NCBI GenBank assembly: GCA_020809425.1
Contig: JAGGDC010000001.1
Location: forward strand, 1,488,001-1,552,000
Source of the DNA: Candidatus Synoicihabitans palmerolidicus
Lineage (GTDB): Bacteria; Verrucomicrobiota; Verrucomicrobiia; Opitutales; Opitutaceae
Direction of reading: 5' to 3'
DNA length: 64,000 bases
In this document: positions 1,344-61,744 of the stretch, piece by piece
Numbering within the stretch: position 1 is the first letter of the stretch
Layout: each line of letters opens with the position of its first letter
The notes under the pieces: generated by a model
Database searches by the model: none
What the model saw: only the letters and a program-made list of their open reading frames with translations
Told to the model about the DNA's origin: nothing
Made by a program: the position numbers and the translations under genes

Positions 1344-1923
1344 CCTCCGCCCCCCACACCACCCGACATGCGGGTCCGCACCGGGCGGTTCCGGAACGCT
1401 ATCGGACCGTAGTTGGATAGAACCGAATCACCTACTTGGCAGGTGGGCCCTTCGGTTGAGTTTGAGAAAACCGTTTCGCGCCGACCACCCGATACACCGG
1501 TCGGTGTCGGAGGGTGGATCGAGCAAACGGACTCGCGCTCATCATTTTGGTTCGGGCCTTCGTCACAGTTGAGACCTCCAGTTCATTCGTCGGACGGATA
1601 ACCCGTCAGCGACTACTCCCGGCTCGTTTCCCGTGACTACTATGCCTTCTGCTGACTCCTCTGTTTCTTCCGTCGTCGTTACCGACGCGGCTGCTCCCCG
1701 TCATAGACGGGACGCGGGGCGCAGAGGCCTCCCCGGATAATGGCATCAACTTCCCTCGCACAAGCGCACCGTCTACCCTACATCCAGTACCACAGGACTT
1801 CGTCATGTGGTGGTGACTCGTCCCGGATGCTAAGCCTATTACCATGTTTCTGTTCGTCGCCTCACGAGTTTGCCTACGGCTTCTTTCAGACCCAGCCTCA
1901 CGGCTACGCCCTTGCCCTCAGCT

Positions 1924-3458: not shown

Positions 3459-4394
3459 ATGTCTTCGTTCATCCATCATCTTCGTATCGCTGTTGTCGGC
3501 TTCCTCATGGGCTGCGCCGACGTTGTTCCCGGCGTTTCCGGCGGCACCATCGCGTTCATTTGTGGTATCTACGAACGACTTCTCAATGGGATTAAAAAAA
3601 TCGATCTGACCACGCTGGGGATGCTCATGCGCGGCGATATCAAAGACGCGTGGGCTCGTATTCCGGGGGGATTTTTTGTCGCCCTCGGAACGGGTCTCCT
3701 TCTCGCCGTACTGACCTTTGCGAAGGTGCTTGAACACTTGATGGTGCACCACCCAGTGCTCCTCTGGGCATTCTTTTTGGGACTGGTCGTGGGCTCCATC
3801 GTCCTGTTGGCCCGCCAAACCTGGGTGTGGAAGCCTGTCGACTGGTTTGTTTTCCTGGGCTTCAGTTTCGGGACGTTTATTTTAGTTGGTCTGGAGGCCA
3901 CCAATACGCCAGCCGGTCTTCCTTTTGTATTCCTCGCGGGTGAAATCGCCATCTGTGCCATGATTCTCCCCGGGATCTCGGGCTCTTACCTGCTGCTCAT
4001 CATGGGCAAGTACCAAGAAGTGCTGACCGCCGTGAACCAACGCGATTTTGTCACCCTGGGGGTCTTTTGTTTGGGCATCGCCACAGGAATTCTGTCCTTT
4101 GTTCGGATCGTCAGTTGGTTACTGAACCGTTTTCGCCACACCACGCTCATCGCCTTGACGGGAGTTATGGCGGGCGCTCTCCGCACACTTTGGCCTTGGA
4201 AAGAAACCCTGACGACCCGCATCAGTAGTTCCGGCGAGGAAGTTCCTCTGGTCCAGATTAACATCATGCCCGGTCAAGATGGACAAATCTGGTTGGCGCT
4301 GGGTCTGGCCATACTAGGCGGAGTCGCCGTCACTCTGGTCGAACGCTGGGCCCGTGCAGAGGAAACGTCCGCCAAGTCGCTTGATTTAATCTAG
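3459..4394 (+). CDS. DUF368 membrane protein, PopT-type undecaprenyl-phosphate translocase
   Basis: A 311-residue polytopic inner-membrane protein starting at ATG 3459 (MSSFIHHLRIAVVGF). The frame is open upstream through intron sequence, but this Met precedes the conserved start of the family. It has the two family signatures: GCADVVPGVSGGTIAF near residues 20-35 and LPGISGSYLLLIMGKY in the second half. DUF368 proteins (PopT) are known to return undecaprenyl phosphate across the membrane for cell-wall synthesis. The stop codon TAG at 4392-4394 overlaps the first bases of the repeat element at 4391, so that insertion lies exactly at the 3' end of the gene. No partner genes are adjacent. Confidence 0.88.
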   Translation: MSSFIHHLRIAVVGFLMGCADVVPGVSGGTIAFICGIYERLLNGIKKIDLTTLGMLMRGDIKDAWARIPGGFFVALGTGLLLAVLTFAKVLEHLMVHHPVLLWAFFLGLVVGSIVLLARQTWVWKPVDWFVFLGFSFGTFILVGLEATNTPAGLPFVFLAGEIAICAMILPGISGSYLLLIMGKYQEVLTAVNQRDFVTLGVFCLGIATGILSFVRIVSWLLNRFRHTTLIALTGVMAGALRTLWPWKETLTTRISSSGEEVPLVQINIMPGQDGQIWLALGLAILGGVAVTLVERWARAEETSAKSLDLI

Positions 4395-4489
4395 AAAACG
4401 CACTCCACATAAGAAACGCATGTAACAAAGTTATGTTATCCAGTAGGTTAGCGGGTTTCAAACGTGCCCACGCCGACTCACCTGGCAGG
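4391..4489 (+). repeat. Left half of the 186-bp miniature element (copy R4)
   Basis: It begins CTAGAAAACGCA and aligns along its length with the first half of the intact copy at 31443-31628, ending in the palindrome half CACCTGGCAGG. From 4490 the text is the 5' end of a DUF4338-ISAs1 element. The right half of the repeat is not found on the other side of the insertion. Confidence 0.75.
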
Positions 4490-6102
4490 CAGGACTATTT
4501 CATAATAAAATGTAAGTTGCAGGTAAATAATATTATATGTAATTTGAAATGGATTTTTTCCCGGCATGTCCGACCAGAGTCGGCAAATGTTTTAGAAAAC
4601 GACCCGTCCAAACCGCCGTCAGAGATACCTGCTGGATAATGCCACGATCCGGTTGCTCGACGATCAAGCAGAGATAGAGTGATGAAACGACCTGATCCGC
4701 ACTCACCATTATTTGCGCAGTTCGAACGTGGCGGGAAAAGCGCTGCGCTACGTGGTGGAAGTGGCAGGGAAGTGGGCGGCACTGCTCTCGTTCAGCTCCG
4801 CAGTCTACCATCTAAAGGCACGCGACAGCTGCATTGGCTAGGAAGCATGGCAGCGCCTCGAACTGCTCGTTGCCAACAGCTGCTTGCTGATTGTTGGGTC
4901 GTCGCGCTCCATGCCAAATCTGGCGTCCCAAAGCCTCTCGCTGGCGCTCAGACGCCTGCCCGAAGACTGGCGTGGTGCTTTTGGCTCGGAACCTGTCGCA
5001 GTCGAGACCTTCGTGGATCCGGAGTTTTTCGAGGGCACTTGCTATAAGGCCGCCAACTAGACGGTGGTAGGTTCGAGCCAGGGGTTCGCCCGCCAAGCGG
5101 CAGATTTTTACCAGCATCACGGCAAGCCCAAGACGATTCTGAGGTATCCACTGCGGCAGGACTTCAAGGAGCTGCTGTGCCGCGAGGAGCTACTCGAGCC
5201 CTACCATGGCTACTGCCAGCAGCAGCAAAAGCGGTATCCGCGCCTTGCCGAAGGTAAGGCGATCGGCTCGCTCATGGAAGCCTTTAGGTTGCTCGAGGAC
5301 CGGCGCGAGCACAAGGGGCGCCGATATCGCCTCTCCGGGTTGCTCGGCGTGGTCGTTTGCGGATACTTCGCGGGGTGCCGCTCGCTGGAGCAGTGCGCCG
5401 CCTTCGCCGCTGCGTTGAATCAAAGGCAGTGCCGCAGCTTCGGCTTCTGGCGTGCCCCCGGCACCGGCCAGCTCGTCGCCCCCTCCCATACGACACTATG
5501 GCGAGCCATTTGCGCTGCGCAGCCAGAGGCCTTCGATAAAGTCGTGGAAACATGGCTCCGGCAGCATCAGCACGACGCCCCGCAGGCCATCGCCATCGAC
5601 GGCAAGGTGATCAGGGCGACGGCGACACTCGCCAATCCTGAGGCCTTGAGCGTCTCGGCGATCAGCCATAGCCCAAGGGATTTTTTTTCAGCAGCCTTTG
5701 CGTCAGGGGAAAGAACCACGAGCCGTAGGCCGTCGTCGATCTGCTCGGCAAGATCGGTCCGATCGATGGAACGCTCGTAACCGTTGACGCCCTACCCTGC
5801 CGCAGGACGCTAGCCCACAGCATCGTGCAGGAGAACGGAGCCGATTATCTGATGAGCGTGAAGGGCAACCGCCCGGCGCTGCGCAAGGCCATCGTCAAAA
5901 GGATGGATGCCAGCGAGGTCAGAAGATCTTCACCCTGAAAAAGGGCCATGGCAGGACCGAGCGCCACAGCATCGCAGCGATCGACGTCAGCCCGACCGAC
6001 CTGACCTGGCCATTCGCGGCGCAAGCCGGCCGGATCACCCGAGAGCGCGAGAACCTCACGACAGGTAAAAAACAAATCCAATGCATAGTTTTCGTGACCA
6101 GC
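4490..6102 (+). mobile_element. DUF4338-ISAs1 element, type 1, copy A (3' truncated)
   Basis: The left end (CAGGACTATTTCATAATAAA) is shared with the opposite-strand copy at 59998-61555, and in both it abuts CCTGSCAGG. The right end is lost where IS3 copy B begins at 6103. The IS3 has no target duplication here, so a deletion accompanied or followed that insertion. Confidence 0.8.
4565..6102 (+). pseudogene. DUF4338 + ISAs1-type transposase, type 1, broken
   Basis: By comparison with the second copy, the protein starts at ATG 4565 (MSDQSRQMFE). The N-terminal half is a DUF4338/DruA-like domain (DLINTHHYLRSSNMAGKALH; NLASQSLSLALRRLPEDWRG; VDPEFFEGTCYKAANWTVVG). The second half is an ISAs1-type DDE transposase (FRLLEDRREHKGRRYRLSGL for the DDE-associated domain; AIAIDGKVIRATA for the first Asp). 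Several frameshifts interrupt it (about 4590-4680, 4840, 5060, 5680, 5920). The C-terminus is cut at 6102. The element is probably inactive. Confidence 0.75.
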
Positions 6103-11760: not shown

Positions 11761-13602
11761 CATGGTCTTTTGTTTTAGGAATGGGAACGGATGGCGCGCA
11801 GGGAGATATGCGTGGCATGTTGGCAGGATTCGAAGACGTGCGGCAGGGGCCGCTCGGGCCAGTGTTGGGCGCAGACGCGCAGCAGGACGCTGCGCAAGAG
11901 GGCGAGGTTGGCCAGGGGGCGTTGACGTTGCGGGTACGCGAGTGGTCTTCGCGCCAGCAGGCGTCGCGGCGCCAGTGGTTGCGGATCTCCACTCCGCCCC
12001 AGTGCCCGCGGATCAAGGCGAGCATTTGCGCAGGGCTGCGTTCTGCGGGTGCCAGGTTGCTGGCGTAGGCGTGTTGCTCGCAACTTTCGGTGAGGTCGCG
12101 TTTTCGCACCGTGGTTTTGTCCACGAGCACCAGGCTGCGCAGCCCGGGGTAGTCGGCTTGCGAGGGCGTGGCCACCACCACGGACACCCGCCGGTCACGC
12201 GGCCCCGACTCGGATCGTCAGCTCAAAAAAGGGGGGTGGAACGGTCCGGGCGCGCGGGACCAGCGCGCTCAGCTGAGGTTGGTTGCCTCTGATCTGGGGC
12301 ACATACTCGCCGCCTTTTTCCACGATGGTGCGGGCCTGCTCGCGGGTGGCGTGCAAGGCGTCGCCGGTGTGACGATCTGCTCGTCTAACGACGCGGCGGC
12401 CAACACCTCACCGGCGCGGGCCTGTTCACTGCGCGGGGTGTTTTCCTTTTGATCGACGATGGCCAGGGCGAGCGCTCCGGGCAGGGCACCGGCGTGGGCT
12501 GTGAGCCAGCGGTTGTGAGGGCCTGGGCAAAGGCCTCCGGATCTAGCCGGGTGAGCACGTCGTAAAACACGCTGTAACTGGGGGCCAGGCGGACCTTTTT
12601 GCCGGCCTCACGGGGCAGGGCCAGGGCGAAGTGCTGGTCTTGGTCGAGCAGGTTGGCCATACGAGCGATCGACGCGATGTCGCGCCGGCCGGCAGGCAGC
12701 GCGAGCGCCATGATGCCAAGAACCGGACCGATCTTGAAGCGGGTGTTTTTGGCGCGCGGATCGGGCACGCCGCACAAGGCCTCCCACAGAGAGGGCAACT
12801 GGCCGTTTTTGAGCGGCAGGGTGCCGGTGGGCGCGCGGCGCAGTCCCGCCCGGCAGTCCTCGGGCAAAGCGGGGTCGGGGGCGCTCAGCAGGGCCTTGGC
12901 CGAGGGGTGCAGGGGCCGCAGCAGCCACAGGTGCTATGGGGTTTGCCGTGCTCGCGGTAAAAGTCGCCTCGGTGCCGTTCGTAACCCTGGCTGGTCCCGA
13001 CCGGCTCCCACGCGGAGGCCCTGTAGCACGTGCCTTGGTAGGCCTCCGGGTCGGTGAAGGTCTTCGGCTAGCAGCGGCCGATAGCCGAAGCGTTCCTGCC
13101 AATGGCCCGGCAACGTGCGCACGGCCGCCGCGAGCACCTGGGAGGCGAAATTGGGCTCCTCGCCGTGCTTGGTGAGCAGTAGAAAGCGGCGGTTTTGCAC
13201 CACCAGGGAAAGCCGTTCGACCCGGCGGGTCGCATCCCAGCCCACCCACCGGTCCCGGTCCTTGAGCGCGTAGCAGGCCGGACCCCACGCCAGCAGCGCC
13301 ACACCGCCCGCCCCCCTCTTTCGACAATCTGGCGCAGGTAATCGCCCACCGGATGCCCGGATCCCAAGTAGTGCCGCTCGTGCAGCTGCGCGTCGAACCA
13401 CTCCTGCTCGGCCGCAGTGGCCATGCGCACCTCCACGTTTCGATCCCAGTGCTTCTGCTCCGGGGTTGCGTTCGTCGCTTCCCTTTCCGTTTCACCTTTA
13501 GATTTCATCCCACTGAAACAGATCGAAAATCGGCCAAATGGTTTAGCTCAAAGTTACACCGCTGACCTTCAATCACTTCACCCGTCACGGGAAAAGACCA
13601 TG
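11761..13602 (-). mobile_element. DUF4338-ISAs1 element, type 2, copy A (1842 bp)
   Basis: Both ends carry the same terminal inverted repeat: CATGGTCTTTT at 11761 and its complement AAAAGACCATG ending at 13602. The transposase lies on the minus strand. This is the longest of three copies (others at 29280-30974 and 47847-49209). No flanking direct repeat was found. It ends 73 bp before the prfC ATG, so it may have displaced the prfC promoter. Confidence 0.85.
11775..13508 (-). pseudogene. DUF4338 + ISAs1-type transposase, type 2, copy A, frameshifted
   Basis: It starts at 13508 (MKSKGETEREATN). The DUF4338 domain is recognisable as LHERHYLGSGHPVGDYLRQI, a GWDATRRVERLSLVVQNRRF segment, and the EAYQGTCYKASAW-like motif in shifted frames. 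The ISAs1 domain follows: GVPDPRAKNTRFKIGPVLGI, LALDGK-type first Asp and the C-terminal HWGGVEIRNHWRRDACWRED, matching the HWxIEN...ED signature. At least five frameshifts are seen between 13310 and 11930. It is inactive as read. Confidence 0.78.
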
Positions 13603-29020: not shown

Positions 29021-29196
29021 TCTCTAATCCTAAATCCTAGATCCTAATTACAAACAAGCTCACTCACCATCTAGTCGCACTAAGGTGGAGAAATCCCCCG
29101 ACATCAGTCGCTGAGTGGATCGTTGTGTTTCACCGAGTACTCTCGGTCCTCCCGATTCAAAATGCGCGATCTCGGATCCGATACCCTCGCTTCATC
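29021..29196. other. Intergenic region upstream of yicC
   Basis: It contains a short degenerate repeat (TCCTAAATCC, TAGATCCTAA) right before the yicC start. No gene was recognised. It ends at the miniature-element half at 29197. Confidence 0.4.
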
Positions 29197-29279
29197 CTAG
29201 AAAACGCATGTTACAAAATTATGTTATCCAGTCGATTAGTGATTTTCAACCGTGCACACGTCGACTCACCTGACAGGAG
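29197..29279 (+). repeat. Left half of the miniature element (copy R29)
   Basis: It starts CTAGAAAACGCATG, lacks about 15 bp near its left end compared with R4, and ends CACCTGACAGG. It then meets, after AG, the CATGGTCTTTT terminus of the type 2 DUF4338-ISAs1 element. The right half is not present beyond the element. Confidence 0.72.
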
Positions 29280-30974
29280 CATGGTCTTTTCCCGTGACGG
29301 GTGAAGTGATTGAAGGTCAGCGGTGTAACTTTGAGCTAACCCATTTGGCCGATTTTCGATCTGTTTCAGTGAGATGAAATCTAAAGGTGAAACAGCAAGG
29401 GAAGCGACGAACGCAAACCCGGAGCAGAAGCACTGGGATCGAAACGTGGAGGTGCGCATGGCCACTGCGACCGAGCAGGAGTGGTTCGACGCGCAGCTGC
29501 ACGAACGGCACTACTTGGGATCCGGGCATCCTGTGGGCGATTACCTGCGCCAGATTGTCGAAAGAGGGGGGCGGGCGGTGTGGCGCTGCTGGCCGAGACC
29601 TTCACCGACCCGGAGGCCTACCAAGGCACGTGCTACAAGGCCTCCGCGTGGGAGCCGGTCGGGACCAGCCAGGGTTACGACCGGCACCGAGGCGATGTTT
29701 ACCGCGAGCACGGCAAACCCAAGCACCTGTGGCTGCTGCGGCCCCTGCACCCCTCGGCCAAGGCCCTGCTGAGCGCCCCCGACCCCGCTTTGCCCGAGGA
29801 CTGCCGGGCGGGACTGCGCCGCGCGCCCACCGGCACCCTGCCGCTCAAAAACGGCCAGTTGCCTTCTCTGTTGGAGGCCCTGTGCGGCGTGCCCGATCCG
29901 CGCGCCAAAAACACCCGCTTCAAGATCGGTCCGGTTCTTGGCCTCGTGGCGCTCGCGCTGCTGGCCGGCCGGCGCGACATCGCGTCGATCGCTCGTATGG
30001 CCAACCTGCTCGACCAAGACCAGCGCTTCGCCCTGGCCCTGCCCCGTGAGGCCGGAAAAAAGGTCCGCCTGGCCCCCAGTTACAGCGTGTTTTACGACGT
30101 GCTCACCCGGCTCGATCCGGAGGCCTTTGCCCAGGCCCACACAACCGTTGGCTCACAGCCCACGCCGGTGCCCTGCCCGGAGCGCTCGCCCTGGACGAAA
30201 AGTTTATCCGCGACGCGGTCGGGGTGCTCAGCCTGGTCGAGGCCGACACCGGCGCGCCGGTCGCCCTGGCCATCGTCGATCAAAAGGAAAACACCTCGCG
30301 CAGTGAACAGGCCCGCGCCGGTGAGGTGTTGGCCGCCGCGTCGTTGGACGAGCAGATCGTCACACCGGCGACGCCTTGCACGCCACCCGCGAGCAGGCCC
30401 GCACCATCGTGGGAAAAGGCGGCGAGTATGTGCCCCAGATCAAAGGCAACCAACCCCAGCTGAGCGCGCTGGTCCAGCGCGCCCGGACCGTTCCACCCCC
30501 TTTTTTGAGCTGACCGATCCGAGTCGGGACCGCGTGACCACCTGGCGGGTGTCCGTGGTGGTGGCCACGCCCTCGCAAGCCGACTACCCCGGGCTGCGCA
30601 GCCTGGTGCTCGTGGACAAAACCACGGTGCGAAAACGCGACCTCCCCGAAAGTTGCGAGCAACGCGCCTACGCCAGCAGCCTGGCACCCGCAGAACGCAG
30701 CCCTGCGCAAATGCTCGCCTTGATCCGCGGGCACTGGGGCGGAGTGGAGATCCGCAACCACTGGCGCCGCGACGCCTGCTGGCGCAAAGACCACTCGCGT
30801 ACCCGCAACGTCACCCCCCCTGGCCAACCTCGCCCTCTTGCGCAGCGTCCTGCTGCGCGTCTGCGCCAAACACTGGCCCGAGCGGCCCCTGCCGCACGTC
30901 TTCGAATCCTGCCAACATTCCACGCATATCTCCCTGCGCGCCATCCGTTCCCATTCCTAAAACAAAAGCCCATG
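29280..30974 (+). mobile_element. DUF4338-ISAs1 element, type 2, copy B (1695 bp)
   Basis: It begins CATGGTCTTTT at 29280 and ends AAAAGCCCATG at 30974, matching copy A's inverted repeats with one mismatch. It is shorter than copy A because about 150-170 bp of the DUF4338 region is deleted near 29590. The left flank is the R29 repeat half and the right flank is the interior of a response-regulator gene, so flanking DNA was lost on at least one side. Confidence 0.85.
29374..30960 (+). pseudogene. DUF4338 + ISAs1-type transposase, type 2, copy B, deleted and frameshifted
   Basis: It starts at 29374 (MKSKGETAREATN). The DUF4338 domain jumps from GGRAVWRC to ETFTDPEAYQGTCYKASAW; the missing part in copy A lies between two near-identical GCTGCTRGC boundaries. 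The ISAs1 domain is well preserved (CGVPDPRAKNTRFKIGPVLG; VALALLAGRRDIASIARMAN), with shifts near 30140, 30360, 30420 and 30820. The C-terminal RGHWGGVEIRNHWRRDACW is visible. Confidence 0.78.
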
Positions 30975-31440: not shown

Positions 31441-31442
31441 AC

Positions 31443-31628
31443 CCAGAAAACGCAGTTCACATAAGAAAACGGATGTGATAAATTTATGTTATCCTGTCGG
31501 TGAGTGAGTTTCAACCGTGCACCCACCGACTCACCTGACAGGTGAACGAATCGATGCCTTCGACGGATCGTAACTCGTTACAACTTAGCGCCCTTCGTTC
31601 CCTTTTGTAACATCCCACTTCGGAATTT
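31443..31628. mobile_element. Intact 186-bp miniature element with 9-bp target duplication (copy R31)
   Basis: The direct repeat GCCCTGAAC flanks it exactly (31434-31442 and 31629-31637). It has no coding capacity. Centrally it can fold: CCTGTCGGTGAGT (31493-31505) against ACTCACCTGACAGG (about 31529-31542), with the palindrome CACCTGACAGGTG. Related sequence occurs at 4391, 29197, 45192 and 61556. A 9-bp duplication fits the 8-10 bp produced by ISAs1-type transposases, so it may be mobilised by the resident DUF4338-ISAs1 elements (inference). Confidence 0.82.
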
Positions 31629-44862: not shown

Positions 44863-45191
44863 AACTAACCCGCGCCTCCATCCCCTCGGCCCTTCGCAGT
44901 GCGTCTGCACCAACACGCGTAAAGCAACACCACACTTCATCAAATCGTCACCGGGAGAGGTCACGGATTTAATTGAGAATCCGCGCGTTCCTATCCGTCG
45001 ATCATCTGTCTCTTCAAGTCATTCGACGAGCAATACTCGGCCCCACGACCGAAGGCTGGGGCTCAACACCGCTCCCTCGGAAACGTGCGCTGCGACGGTC
45101 CATCGGCAGCGCCGCTTCCTCTCATCGGGCCAACCCAGCATACTGACCCACGGCCAACCAAAAAGCGCCCGGTTGAGGTTGCTCGCTCAAT
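44863..45191. other. Intergenic region, no gene seen
   Basis: No frame with recognisable content. It lies between an IS end and a miniature-element copy. It could be decayed coding sequence, but nothing can be named. Confidence 0.4.
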
Positions 45192-45376
45192 TTATAAAAC
45201 GCAGTTTACATAAAAACACTATGTTACAAAATTATGTTATCCAGTCGGTTAGTGATTTTTAGCCGTGCACCCGCCGACTCACCTGGCAGGGGAACGAATC
45301 GATGCCTTCGACGAACCGTAACTCGTTACAACTTCGCGCCCTTCATTCCCTTCTGTAACATCCAACTTCGAAATTT
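45192..45376. mobile_element. Miniature element, full-length degenerate copy (R45, 185 bp)
   Basis: It aligns with the 31443-31628 copy from TTATAAAACGCAG to TTCGAAATTT. The central palindrome is altered to CACCTGGCAGGGG. The flanks TCGCTCAAT and AGGTTCAAT agree at 6 of 9 positions, consistent with an aged target duplication. Confidence 0.7.
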
Positions 45377-45385
45377 AGGTTCAAT

Positions 45386-47846: not shown

Positions 47847-49195
47847 GAGGCCTACCAAGGCACGTGCTACAAGGCCTCCGCATGGGAGCCGGTCGGGACC
47901 AGCCAGGGTTACGAACGGCACCGAGGCGACTTTTACCGCGAGCACGGCAAACCCAAGCACCTGTGGCTGCTGCGGCCCCTGCACCCCTCGGTCAAGGCCC
48001 TGCTGAGCGCCCCCGACCCCGCTTTGCCCGAGGACTGCCGGGCGGGACTGCGCCGCGCGCCCACCGGCATCCTGCCGCTCAAAAACGGCCAGTTGCCCTC
48101 TCTGTTGGAGGCCCTGTGCGGCGTGCCCGATCCGCGCGCCAAAAACACCCGCTTCAAGATCGGTCCGGTTCTTGGCCTCGTGGCGCTCGCGCTGCTGGCC
48201 GGCCGGCGCGACATCGCGTCGATCGCTCGTATGGCCAACCTGCTCGACCAAGACCAGCGCTGCGCCCTGGCCCTGCCCCGTGAGGCCGGAAAAAAGGTCC
48301 GCCTGGCCCCCAGTTACAGCGTGTTTTACGACGTGCTCACCCGGCTCGATCCGGAGGCCTTTGCCCAGGCCCTCAACCGCTGGCTCACAGTCCACGCCGG
48401 TGCCCTGCCCGGAGCGCTCGCCCTGGACGGAAAGTTTATCCGCGACGCGGTCGGGGTGCTCAGCCTGGTCGAGGCCTACACCGGCGCGCCGGTCGCCCTG
48501 GCCATCGTCGATCAAAAGGAAAACACCCCGCGCAGTGAACAGGCCCGCGCCGGTGAGGTGTTGGCCGCCGCGTCGTTGGACGAGCAGATCGTCACACCGG
48601 CGACGCCTTGCACGCCACCCGCGAGCAGGCCCGCACCATCGTGGAAAAAGGCGACGAGTATGTGCCCCAGATCAAAGGCAACCAACCCCAGCTGAGCGCG
48701 CTAGTCCAGCGCGCCCGGACCGTTCCACCCCCTTTTTGGAGCTGACCGATCCGAGTCGAGGCCGCGTGACCACCTGGCGGGTGTCCGTGGTGGTGGCTAC
48801 GCCCTCGCAAGCCGACTACCCCGGGCTGCGCAGCCTGGTGCTCGTGGACAAAACCACGGTGCGAAAACGCGACCTCACCGAAAGTGGCGAGCAACGCGCC
48901 TACGGCCAGCAGCCTGGCACCCGCAGAACGCAGCCCTGCACAAATGCTCGCCTTGATCCGCGGGCACTGGGGCGGAGTGGAGATCCGCAACCACAGGCGC
49001 CGCAACGCCTGCTGGCGCGAAGACCACTCGCGTACCCGCAACGTCAACGCCCCCCTGGCCAACCTCGCCCTCTTGCGCAGCGTCCTGCTGCGCGTCTGCG
49101 CCCAACACTGGCCCGAGCGGCCCCTGCCGCACGTCTTCGAATCCTGCCAACATTCCACGCATATCTCCCTGCGCGCCATCCGTTCCCATTCCTAA
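47847..49195 (+). pseudogene. DUF4338 + ISAs1-type transposase, type 2, copy C
   Basis: The N-terminal half of DUF4338 is missing; the text starts EAYQGTCYKASAWEPVGTSQ. The ISAs1 domain is the best preserved of the three copies: a continuous frame covers CGVPDPRAKNTRFKIGPVLG through LNRWLTVHAGALPGALALDG (first Asp) and VLAAASLDEQIV, with shifts near 48600, 48735 and 48905. The C-terminal RGHWGGVEIRNH...CWREDHSRTRN is readable to 49195. Confidence 0.78.
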
Positions 49196-49209
49196 AACAA
49201 AAGACCATG
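47847..49209 (+). mobile_element. DUF4338-ISAs1 element, type 2, copy C (5' truncated)
   Basis: It begins inside the DUF4338 coding region (GAGGCCTACCAAGGCACG) directly at the IS3 border and ends AAAAGACCATG at 49209, the expected type 2 terminus. It is convergent with argD, with 43 bp between the IS end and the argD stop. Confidence 0.85.
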
Positions 49210-59700: not shown

Positions 59701-59997
59701 CTAGTGCACAGTTTTTTGTATAATAGCATGAAAGACTTCAGCGGGAGACTGTCCGTCGAGCCCGATGCGAGGGCGATTATTGAGTCGCCACTCCGCTTTG
59801 GCCATTTGGCCTTTGGTGACGGTGTTAAAGTCGATGCCTTGAGGGAAGTATTCCCGGATCAGGCCGTTGATATTCGCGACCGCACCGCGCTGCCAAGGGC
59901 TGTGTGGATTGCAGAAGTAGACCGCCACTTTTGTGGCCAGGGAGAAGGCGGCATGTTGGGCCATTTCGCGGCCGTTGTCGTAGGTGAGGGTCTTTGC
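59701..59997 (-). mobile_element. IS30-family transposase, C-terminal remnant
   Basis: Reading leftwards from 59997: KTLTYDNGREMAQHAAFSLA, KVAVYFCNPHSPWQRGAVAN, NGLIREYFPQGIDFNTV and NNRPRIGLDGQSPAEVFHAI, ending at 59701. These are the last two-thirds of the IS30 DDE domain (YDNG carries the second Asp; the Glu lies near NxNGLIR). It is joined in frame to the ISAs1-type sequence at GAGAGCG (59998-60004), forming a chimeric ORF. Confidence 0.82.
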
Positions 59998-61480
59998 CGC
60001 TCTCGGGTGATCCGGCCGGCCTGCGCCGCGAAGGGCCAGGTCAGGTCGGTCGGGCTGGCGGCGATCGCTGCGATGCTGCGGCGCTCGGTCCTGCCATGGC
60101 CCTTTTCCAGGGTGAAGATCTTCCTGACTTCGCTGGCATCCATCCTTTTGACGATGGCCTTGCGCAGCGCCGGGCGGGCTCATCAGATAATCGGCTCCGT
60201 TCTCCTGCACGATGCTGTGGGCTAGCGTCCTGCGGCAGTGTAGGGCGTCAACGGTTATGAGCGTTCCATCGATCGGACCGATCTTGCCGAGCAGATCGAC
60301 GACGGCCTGCGGCTCGTGGTTCTTTCCCCTGACGCAAAGACTGCTTAAAAAAAATCTTTTAGATTATGGCTGATCGCCGAGACGCTCAAGGCCTCAGGAT
60401 TGGCGGGTGTCGCCGTCGCCCTGATCACCTTGCCGTCGATGGCGATGGCCTGCGGGGCGGCGTGCTGATGCTGCCGGAGCCATGTTTCCACGACTTTATC
60501 GAAGGCTTCTGGCTGCGCAGCGCAAATGGCTCGCCATAGTGTCGTATGGGAGGGGGCGACGAGCTGGCCGGTGCCGGGGGCACGCCAGAAGCCGAAGCTG
60601 CGGCACTGCCTTTGATTCAACGCAGCGGCGAAGGCGGCGCACTGCTCCAGCGAGCGGCACCCCGCGAAGTATCCGCAAACGACCACGTCGAGCAACCCGG
60701 AGAGGCGATATCGGCGCCCCTTGCGCTCGCGCCGGTCCTCGAGCAACCTGAAGGCTTCCATTAGCGAGCCGATCGGCCTTATCTTCGGCAAGGCGCGGAT
60801 ACCGCTTTTGCTGCTGCTGGGCCGTAGCCATGGTAGGGCTCGGATAGCTCCTCGCGGCACAGCAGCTCCTTGAAGTCCTGACGCAGTGGATACATCAGAA
60901 TCGTCTTGGGCTTGCCGTGATGCTGGTGAAAATCTGCCGCTTGGCGGGCGAACCCCTGGCTCGAACCTACCACCGTCCAGTTGGCGGCCTTATAGCAAGT
61001 GCCCTCGAAAAACACCGGATCCACGAAGGTCTCGACTGCGACAGGTTCCGAGCCAAAAGCACCACGCCAGTCTTCGCGCAGGCGTCTGAGCACCAGCGAG
61101 AGGCTTTGGGACGCCAGATTTGGCATGGAGCGCGACGACCCAACAATCAGCAAGCGGCTGTTGGCAACGAGTCGTTCGAGGCGCTGCCTGCGCTGCCATG
61201 CTTCCTAGCCAATGCAGCTGTCGCGTGCCTTTAGATGGTAGACTGCGGAGCTGAACGAGAGCAGTGCCGCCTACTTCCCTGCCACTTCCTCCACGTAGTG
61301 CAGCGCTTTTCCCGCCATGTTCGAACTGCGCAAATAATGGTGAGTGTTGATCAGGTCGTTCCATCGCTCTATCTCTGCTTGATCGTCGAGCAACCGGATC
61401 GTGGCATTATCCAGCAGGTATCTCTGACGGCGGTTTGGACGGGTCGTTTTCTCAAACATTTGCCGACTCTGGTCGGACAT
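59998..61480 (-). pseudogene. DUF4338 + ISAs1-type transposase, type 1, copy B, frameshifted
   Basis: Start ATG 61480 (MSDQSRQMFEKTTRPNRRQR). DUF4338 domain: DLINTHHYLRSSNMAGKALH, then in other frames NLASQSLSLVLRRLREDWRG and VDPVFFEGTCYKAANWTVVG. ISAs1 domain: SLMEAFRLLEDRRERKGRRY, GYFAGCRSLEQCAAFAAALN and PQAIAIDGKVIRATATPANP. A shift near 60360 lies in a run of A; the segment VQENGADYLMS and TERRSIAAIAASPTDLTWPF runs to the IS30 junction. Shifts also occur near 61270, 61160, 60830 and 60180. It differs from copy A by many single-base changes, so the two are not recent duplicates. Confidence 0.75.
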
Positions 61481-61555
61481 GCCTAAAAATATCCATTGTG
61501 AATTACATATAATACTATCTACCTGTAACTTACATTTTATTATGAAATAGCCCTG
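59998..61555 (-). mobile_element. DUF4338-ISAs1 element, type 1, copy B (3' end replaced by IS30)
   Basis: The 5' terminus at 61555 matches copy A (4490): inverted, it reads CAGGGCTATTTCATAATAAA directly after CCTGCCAGG. The 3' part is lost at 59998, where IS30 sequence starts. Relative to the repeat it interrupts, it is inserted in the opposite orientation to copy A. Confidence 0.8.
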
Positions 61556-61650
61556 CCTGGCAGGTGAACGCATCGGTGCCTTCGACGGACCGTAACTCGT
61601 TCCAACTTCGCGCCCTTCGTTCCCTGCTGTAACATCCAACTTCGGAATTT
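61556..61650 (+). repeat. Right half of the miniature element (copy R61)
   Basis: CCTGGCAGGTGAACGCATCG through TTCGGAATTT aligns with the second half of the 31443-31628 copy. It begins at the palindrome, exactly where the type 1 IS end stops. The left half is missing. Confidence 0.75.
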
Positions 61651-61744
61651 AGGTTAATTTCACCCAATCTGCCGTCGTCCGCTTTGGTCAGTTGAATCTC
61701 GCGGGTCAGTCTAGCCCTCACCCGCCGTGATCGTCCGAGGTACT

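What the first reader, a model, noticed from the sequence alone, without database searches (positions are those of the whole stretch)
4380..4520. Two different DUF4338-ISAs1 elements abut the same palindromic point of the repeat family
Type 1 copies at 4490 and 61555 and the type 2 copy at 29280 each begin next to the CACCTGRCAGG half-palindrome, in both orientations relative to the repeat. Either the palindrome is a preferred target (a hairpin target) or the repeat halves are terminal parts of these elements. All three have lost the opposite half, so the two models cannot be separated here. This is the best candidate for an undescribed system in the window.
Basis: partly seen in the sequence, partly recalled or inferred. 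Interest (0 to 1): 0.82.

Follow-up and report, generated by a model that had tools for sequence, protein, structure and literature searches.

The report
Jumping gene that targets a palindrome
In this bacterial genome one kind of jumping DNA (an ISAs1-family insertion sequence) was found only at the centre of a palindrome inside a scattered short repeat, in either direction, which makes the repeat a landing site and not a part of the jumping element.

Summary
Type 1 (a 1.9-kb DruA/DUF4338-ISAs1 element, tips CAGGGC) sits in the repeat at every end that could be read: 16 of 16 left ends and 11 of 11 complete right ends, always as CACCTGNCAGG|IS|CCTGNCAGGTG or a near variant; 9 insertions one way, 10 the other. 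All 8 two-ended copies keep complementary repeat halves. 27 repeat sites carry none of the elements studied, and a sister species has the repeat without a type 1 match. So the palindrome is the target; the halves are not element ends. Type 2 differs: 2 of 30 loci abut the repeat, probably the two sides of one insertion. An IS110 element uses a second fixed point of the same repeat (27 of 30 left ends). Among ISAs1 relatives, 23 showed exact 10-bp duplications without this palindrome, so type 1 is an outlier. Unexplained: the two 9-bp copies flanking type 1 usually differ, and the right one is nearly constant. REP-targeting insertion sequences are known; my searches found none in ISAs1.

The parts
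4388..4489 (+). left half of the ~190-bp repeat, ending in the palindrome arm CACCTGGCAGG (4479-4489)
   Evidence: direct reading; repeat family D7; site table
4490..6102 (+). type 1 DruA-ISAs1 element (about 1.6 of 1.92 kb), left tip CAGGACTATTTC; right end replaced by an IS3-family element; frame broken
   Evidence: (L193)
59995..61555 (-). type 1 DruA-ISAs1 element, left tip at 61555, right part cut by an IS30-family element (boundary approximate)
61556..61653 (+). right half of the repeat beginning CCTGGCAGGTG
29196..29277 (+). left half of the repeat (with an internal gap near its start) ending CACCTGACAGG
29280..30974 (+). type 2 DruA-ISAs1 element (tips CATGGTCTTTT, about 210 bp missing inside compared with other copies); its left side abuts the repeat
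31441..31628 (+). uninterrupted repeat with perfect palindrome CACCTGACAGGTG (31532-31544): an empty site
45189..45380 (+). uninterrupted repeat (CACCTGGCAGGGG): an empty site
11761..13602 (-). type 2 copy A, no repeat at its ends, no self duplication
47847..49209 (+). type 2 copy whose 5' part is cut by an IS3-family element

Best explanation
Type 1 is an ISAs1-family insertion sequence with an N-terminal DruA domain. It has become target-specific: it inserts at the centre of the palindrome CACCTGNCAGGTG inside a ~190-bp, MITE-like repeat, in either orientation because the target is symmetrical. Shown: the fixed junction, both orientations, complementary halves, sites without the element, and the repeat in a sister species without a type 1 match. 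Inferred: the DDE transposase itself recognises the palindrome (most likely as duplex DNA, one subunit per arm), perhaps with repeat context, cuts the strands 9 bp apart symmetrically about the central base, and joins its CAGGG tips there, leaving CCTGNCAGG on both sides. An unrelated IS110 element uses another fixed point of the same repeat, so the repeat serves as a landing pad for two transposition systems.
For: 16 of 16 left ends lie on the repeat arm (one search gave 20 type 1 loci with 40 of 109 candidates scored; the other 4 loci lack the left end, that of L075 being L077). 11 of 11 complete right ends lie on the repeat (all 24 candidates scored). Orientation: 9 one way (L062, 065, 066, 068, 069, 070, 072, 073, 079), 10 the other (L061, 063, 064, 067, 071, 074, 075 with 077, 076, 078, 080). 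8 of 8 two-ended copies have complementary halves in one repeat orientation. 64 repeat sites by my count: 19 with type 1, 25 with IS110, 8 of these with both (7.4 expected), 1 with type 2, 27 with none (a few of the 27 are partial repeats). Sister genome G224 has about 14 repeat copies (69-76% identity) and no type 1 match at E 1e-40 (6 of 8 candidates scored). Protein: DruA 76.5 bits, DDE_Tnp_1_assoc 53.8, DDE_Tnp_1 31.1; NCBIfam ISAs1 158 bits, cut-off 70. Near-palindromes exist outside the repeat (inside type 2 copies, and at 13 of the 16 places read), yet no type 1 end has such flanks.
Against: The two flanking 9-mers should be identical copies. In the 8 two-ended copies they differ at 1, 2, 2, 2, 2, 2, 2 and 0 positions. 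Counting the similar copies L068 and L070 once, 11 differences stand against about 3.8 expected at 3% per lineage (P about 0.002). Even the youngest pair, L063 and L067 (0.4% apart), shows 2 each. Relatives with readable ends duplicate 10 bp, not 9. The outer TNA triplets of the repeat disagree in 4 of the 8 copies, so some exchange between repeats is likely. No open full-length type 1 frame was seen in the five copies translated in all frames, and nothing was tested by experiment.
Confidence: 0.87

Rival explanations
1. The repeat halves are the terminal parts of a larger element, and the uninterrupted repeats are its deletion products.
For: In the window alone the halves always touch the element tips.
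Against: Both orientations of the element relative to the repeat (9 and 10); halves complementary in 8 of 8; the repeat has its own ends and a shared TNA triplet in 9 of 14 empty copies examined; a sister species has the repeat without a type 1 match; IS110 occupies 17 repeats that hold no type 1.
Confidence: 0.03
2. Type 1 does not duplicate its target: its right end carries its own copy of the core (CCTGCCAGG), which is joined next to the broken palindrome, somewhat like the core carried by IS110/IS1111 elements or (recalled) the coupling sequence of Tn916.
For: The right 9-mer is exactly CCTGCCAGG in 9 of 11 and has centre C in 11 of 11, in both orientations; the left is CCTGCCAGG in 5 of 16 (Fisher P 0.018; 0.089 after collapsing related copies). 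The young copies L063 and L067 have different left 9-mers and mismatched pairs. Relatives with readable ends give exact 10-bp duplications.
Against: The effect is weak after collapsing related copies; one repeat subfamily (right half beginning GATCG, seen also in L080) has centre C itself; one copy (L075 with L077) has identical 9-mers; recombination, gene conversion or consensus polishing of the assembly could level the right flank.
Confidence: 0.18
3. The palindrome is recognised as an extruded hairpin or cruciform and not as duplex DNA.
For: The palindrome is nearly perfect, the insertion is at its symmetry axis, and known REP-targeting elements use potential hairpins (PMC1525189, Results).
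Against: A symmetric duplex site serves a transposase dimer equally well; the stem is only 5-6 bp; no test here separates the two.
Confidence: 0.15
4. The pattern comes from recombination between element copies, or from mis-assembly, and not from targeting.
For: Among 25 left and 29 right type 2 ends read, no copy had a matching duplication on its own two sides, only between copies, so rearrangement or mis-joining is common here; 4 of 8 type 1-bearing repeats have unequal outer TNA triplets.
Against: Shuffling cannot make 16 of 16 and 11 of 11 ends lie at one point of a repeat, and free reassortment would give half the copies two like halves (0 of 8 seen, chance 0.004).
Confidence: 0.04

Closest known systems
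ISRm22 (IS4 family) in Sinorhizobium meliloti REP elements (PMC1525189: Results, part 1 of the Discussion, and tables read)
   Same: All copies in a repeat, at the palindrome axis; some copies with unequal duplications
   Different: IS4 family, 6-bp duplication, REP target; type 1 is ISAs1 with DruA and its target lies in a ~190-bp MITE-like repeat
IS621 and ISPa11 (IS110/IS1111) in REP elements (PMC11208160 and PMC11187229, passages read)
   Same: Repeat-specific insertion; the IS110 element found here is probably of this kind
   Different: RNA-guided DEDD recombinases; type 1 is a DDE transposase and no guide RNA was looked for in it
DruA-ISAs1 fusion of Candidatus Thiodictyon syntrophicum plasmids (L177, L178) and relatives
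   Same: Same domain order DruA + DDE_Tnp_1_assoc + DDE_Tnp_1, CAGGG tips, 31-36% identity for Thiodictyon
   Different: Exact 10-bp duplications at unrelated sites where ends could be read

Membership tests
ISAs1 insertion-sequence family | ISAs1 transposase by curated model | tested here: met
   NF033564 158.1 bits, cut-off 70, positions 2-314 of 314, on one broken copy with TAG read as W
ISAs1 insertion-sequence family | terminal inverted repeats beginning CAGGG | tested here: met
   CAGGGCTATTTCA and CAGGGCAATTTCA
ISAs1 insertion-sequence family | target duplication of about 10 bp | tested here: inconclusive
   9-bp direct repeat, identical in 1 of 8 two-ended copies; 23 relatives give an exact 10 bp (9 of 14 plasmid loci, 14 of 40 genome loci scanned)
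REP-targeting insertion sequence ('type 1 association' of PMC1525189) | all copies at the same point of the repeat | tested here: met
   16 of 16 left ends, 11 of 11 complete right ends
REP element (the repeat itself) | short palindromic unit | tested here: not met
   the repeat is ~190 bp with terminal inverted repeats and TNA triplets outside; a REP-associated transposase was not searched for
MITE (the repeat itself) | short, terminal inverted repeats and target duplication | tested here: met
   ends CCTAGAAAACGCAGTT / CCTAAATTCCGAAGTT (imperfect); shared TNA in 9 of 14 empty copies examined
MITE (the repeat itself) | an autonomous parent element with the same ends | not tested
   no search for one was made
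IS110 family (second element in the repeat) | DEDD transposase by curated model | tested here: met
   NF033542 166.2 bits, cut-off 140; Pfam PF01548 and PF02371
IS110 family (second element in the repeat) | guide RNA complementary to the target | tested here: inconclusive
   288-nt 5' region with a strong predicted fold; best target matches of 7-9 nt (some with G-U) are not distinctive
Druantia defence system | DruA together with its partner genes | not tested
   DruA is here fused to a transposase inside an insertion sequence; PADLOC was not run

The most novel reading that the evidence does not exclude
Type 1 is a DDE transposon that behaves like a site-specific recombinase element: it carries its own copy of the 9-bp target core at its right end and inserts beside the core of the palindrome without making a true target duplication.
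Probability: 0.18. Interest if true: 0.75.

Novelty: new variant of a known kind. Interest (0 to 1): 0.52.

Why it matters
Most insertion sequences choose targets loosely. A DruA-ISAs1 element with one fixed palindromic target, beside relatives with the same domains but no fixed target seen (Thiodictyon, Acidithiobacillus, and type 2 in the same genome), gives a natural comparison for finding what part of a transposase sets the target. It would add a family to the repeat-targeting insertion sequences, and it shows one MITE-like repeat serving as landing pad for two unrelated systems at two different points.

Tried and rejected
Repeat halves as element ends: rejected by the two orientations, empty sites and the sister species. 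Type 2 as a second user of the palindrome: rejected; one insertion event explains both contacts. Palindrome alone as sufficient target: disfavoured but not excluded; near-palindromes outside the repeat exist and no type 1 end has such flanks, but the list was truncated and the context was not tested. A general ISAs1 preference for palindromes or for CAGG: not supported; 22 duplications compared have a mean of 1.4 of 5 symmetric pairs, although one (GCGAAATCGC, L254) has 4 of 5 and one (GGGTGACCCC, L248) 3 of 5. Reciprocal exchange between L031 and L041: their other flanks do not match. Type 1 relatives in the same order and phylum: none at E 1e-40 and 1e-50 among the other 272 and 386 genomes sampled. 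Scans with single or poor queries found nothing. A guide RNA in the IS110 element: not identified. Rfam at gathering thresholds: no match in the repeat.

End scans of relatives: 14 plasmid loci, 9 with an exact 10-bp duplication, 5 without any found. Of the 80 loci kept, 40 were scanned: 15 gave an exact duplication of 8-10 bp (13 of them 10 bp), 25 none. Nineteen loci were rescanned (17 without one, plus L281 and L282): L282 gave an exact 10 bp, L286 matched at 9 of 10; 8 loci without one were not rescanned.

Caps that bear on the counts: searches scored 40 of 109, 128, 109 and 60 candidates, so numbers of repeats, type 2 and IS110 copies are lower bounds.

Literature: Tobes and Pareja (PMC1525189) Results, part 1 of 2 of the Discussion, and tables read; Murray et al. 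(PMC8636102) passages and part 1 of 2 of one section; PMC11208160, PMC11187229 and PMC8565338 passages only. The papers listed (one each) were not opened. 'No ISAs1 element with a palindromic target found' rests on searches 25 (20 of 7,480 papers listed), 57 and 84 in an open-access library.

Full report
Setting. The window is G000:C1:1488001-1552000 of a 4.40-Mb assembly in 10 contigs, 69.8% complete. Size, contig number and GC (59.2% in the window) fit 'Candidatus Synoicihabitans palmerolidicus' (4.3 Mb, 10 contigs, 58.7% GC, Opitutaceae; PMC8636102, passages). This identity is inferred, not confirmed.

Observation.

Type 1 in the whole genome. A search with the window copy gave 20 type 1 loci, L061-L080 (40 of 109 candidates scored). 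I dropped 21 further 35-bp hits, which match only the IS30-like end included in the query. Sixteen loci keep the left end and all 16 have the repeat arm directly outside the tip...CACCTGNCAGG|CAGGGCTATTTCA, with variants. A search with the right end gave 15 matches, all 24 candidates scored: 11 complete right ends, all on the repeat (...TGAAATTGCCCTG|CCTGNCAGGTG); one (L065) is 4 bp short and has no repeat; the other three are internal pieces. L075 and L077 are the two parts of one copy split by a later insertion (their query ranges overlap by 10 bp), so there are 19 insertions: 9 with the left half of the repeat at the element's left end and 10 the other way round. All 8 two-ended copies carry complementary halves of one repeat orientation.

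The repeat. It is about 190 bp, with ends CCTAGAAAACGCAGTT...CAACTTCGGAATTTAGG forming imperfect inverted repeats, and a TNA triplet shared on both sides in 9 of 14 empty copies examined; 3 of 8 copies with IS110 only and 4 of 8 with type 1 share it. A 30-base right-half pattern occurs 51 times with up to 3 mismatches, against 0 for the reversed control. My count is 64 sites (65 clusters, less one internal fragment, less one for the split copy, plus two double clusters, and the two type 2 halves counted once); four more turned up later (L207, L215, L224, L227). Of the 64, 19 carry type 1, 25 carry IS110, 8 of these both (7.4 expected if independent), 1 type 2, and 27 none of the three, a few of the 27 being partial. 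A sister species (G224) has about 14 copies (69-76% identity), mostly with the arms CACCTTACGGGTG, and no type 1 match at E 1e-40 (6 of 8 candidates scored). So the repeat is a separate MITE-like family that does not depend on type 1. All six listed places with a perfect CACCTGNCAGGTG lie in repeats (the list was truncated). Near-palindromes outside the repeat exist: inside type 2 copies, and at 13 of the 16 places read (two of the other three are repeats and one is type 2). No type 1 end has such flanks, which suggests, but does not prove, that repeat context matters.

Type 2. Thirty loci were fetched of at least 40 copies (40 of 128 candidates scored). Two abut the repeat: L031, which is the window copy, on its left side, and L041 on its right. 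Among 25 left and 29 right ends read, no copy has a matching duplication on its own two sides, but exact 10-bp matches link different copies, for example L045 left with L038 right, L050 left with L054 right, L055 left with L043 right. L031 left (CTGACAGGAG) pairs with L041 right (CTGACAGGTG) at 9 of 10, so both contacts probably come from one insertion. Type 2 therefore has no target preference that can be seen here.

A second targeted element. IS110 (166 bits to the IS110 model, cut-off 140) lies at CGTTCCCTT|CTGTAAC of the repeat in 27 of 30 left ends (40 of 60 candidates scored). The three outside (L200, L206, L212) share only a short core around the same point, as expected for an element with a short target of its own.

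What type 1 is. One broken copy, read through with TAG as W for search only, gives DruA (76.5 bits), DDE_Tnp_1_assoc and DDE_Tnp_1 and the ISAs1 equivalog at 158 bits. No type 1 was found in 272 other genomes of the order or 386 others of the phylum at the strict limits used (both are samples). Relatives elsewhere are common: 565 stretches encode a relative of at least part of it, 80 loci were kept, and 36 of the 80 match from the DruA part through the ISAs1 part. Exact 10-bp duplications within one copy were read in 23 elements: 9 of 14 plasmid loci (2 of them the DruA fusions of Thiodictyon) and 14 of 40 genome loci; the rest gave none or an imperfect or shorter one. None is CCTGNCAGG; one (GCGAAATCGC) is itself nearly symmetric. 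Six Acidithiobacillus marinus copies have six different duplications. Type 1 is thus an outlier in target and in spacing (9 bp).

Unexplained. The two 9-mers flanking type 1 are identical in 1 of 8 two-ended copies. They differ by two bases even in L063 and L067, which are 0.4% apart. The right 9-mer is CCTGCCAGG in 9 of 11, the left in 5 of 16 (P 0.018; 0.089 after collapsing related copies). A carried right core, gene conversion, or levelling in the assembly could do this. The repeat's own TNA triplets agree in 4 of 8 type 1-bearing copies, so some exchange between repeats is likely.

Known kinds. Insertion sequences that always insert in REP palindromes are known in IS3, IS110 and IS4, with weaker preference in IS256 and IS5 (PMC1525189). 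Type 1 works like these. It differs in family, in having a DruA domain, and in using a MITE-like repeat. No ISAs1 case was found in the searches made.

Noticed in passing
type 2 loci L031-L060: No type 2 copy read has matching duplications on its own two sides; exact 10-bp duplications link different copies. This suggests replicative intramolecular transposition, massive recombination between copies, or mis-assembly.
   Followed up: partly
L194-L223; repeat sites such as C1:2101129, C3:376473: An IS110 element uses a second fixed point of the same repeat; 8 repeats carry both elements. Its 288-nt 5' region has a strong predicted fold.
   Followed up: partly
L062, L063, L067 (type 1 frame): These three type 1 copies share in-frame TAG at three Trp positions; L063 is otherwise open over 606 codons, as if dead copies were spread in trans.
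   Followed up: no
L075/L077, L076, L078: Type 1 is itself interrupted near position 324-348 in three copies, two at the same point, perhaps another targeted insertion.
   Followed up: no
window 1742-1907, minus strand: Group II intron D1-D4-3 match (Rfam RF02001, 123 bits).
   Followed up: no
G224:C1:2217035-2217358, 2091171-2091390, 5493675-5493828: A ~29-bp piece of the repeat's right half recurs alone and in loose groups in the sister genome.
   Followed up: no
repeat family: 51 right-half matches lie 38 forward and 13 reverse on the contigs, a strand bias not explained.
   Followed up: no
L226, L228, L235, L236: Another repeated sequence, GAACCGAATCACC then CACTTGGCAGGTG or a variant, then GGCCCTTCGG, carries a near-palindrome of the same kind.
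   Followed up: no
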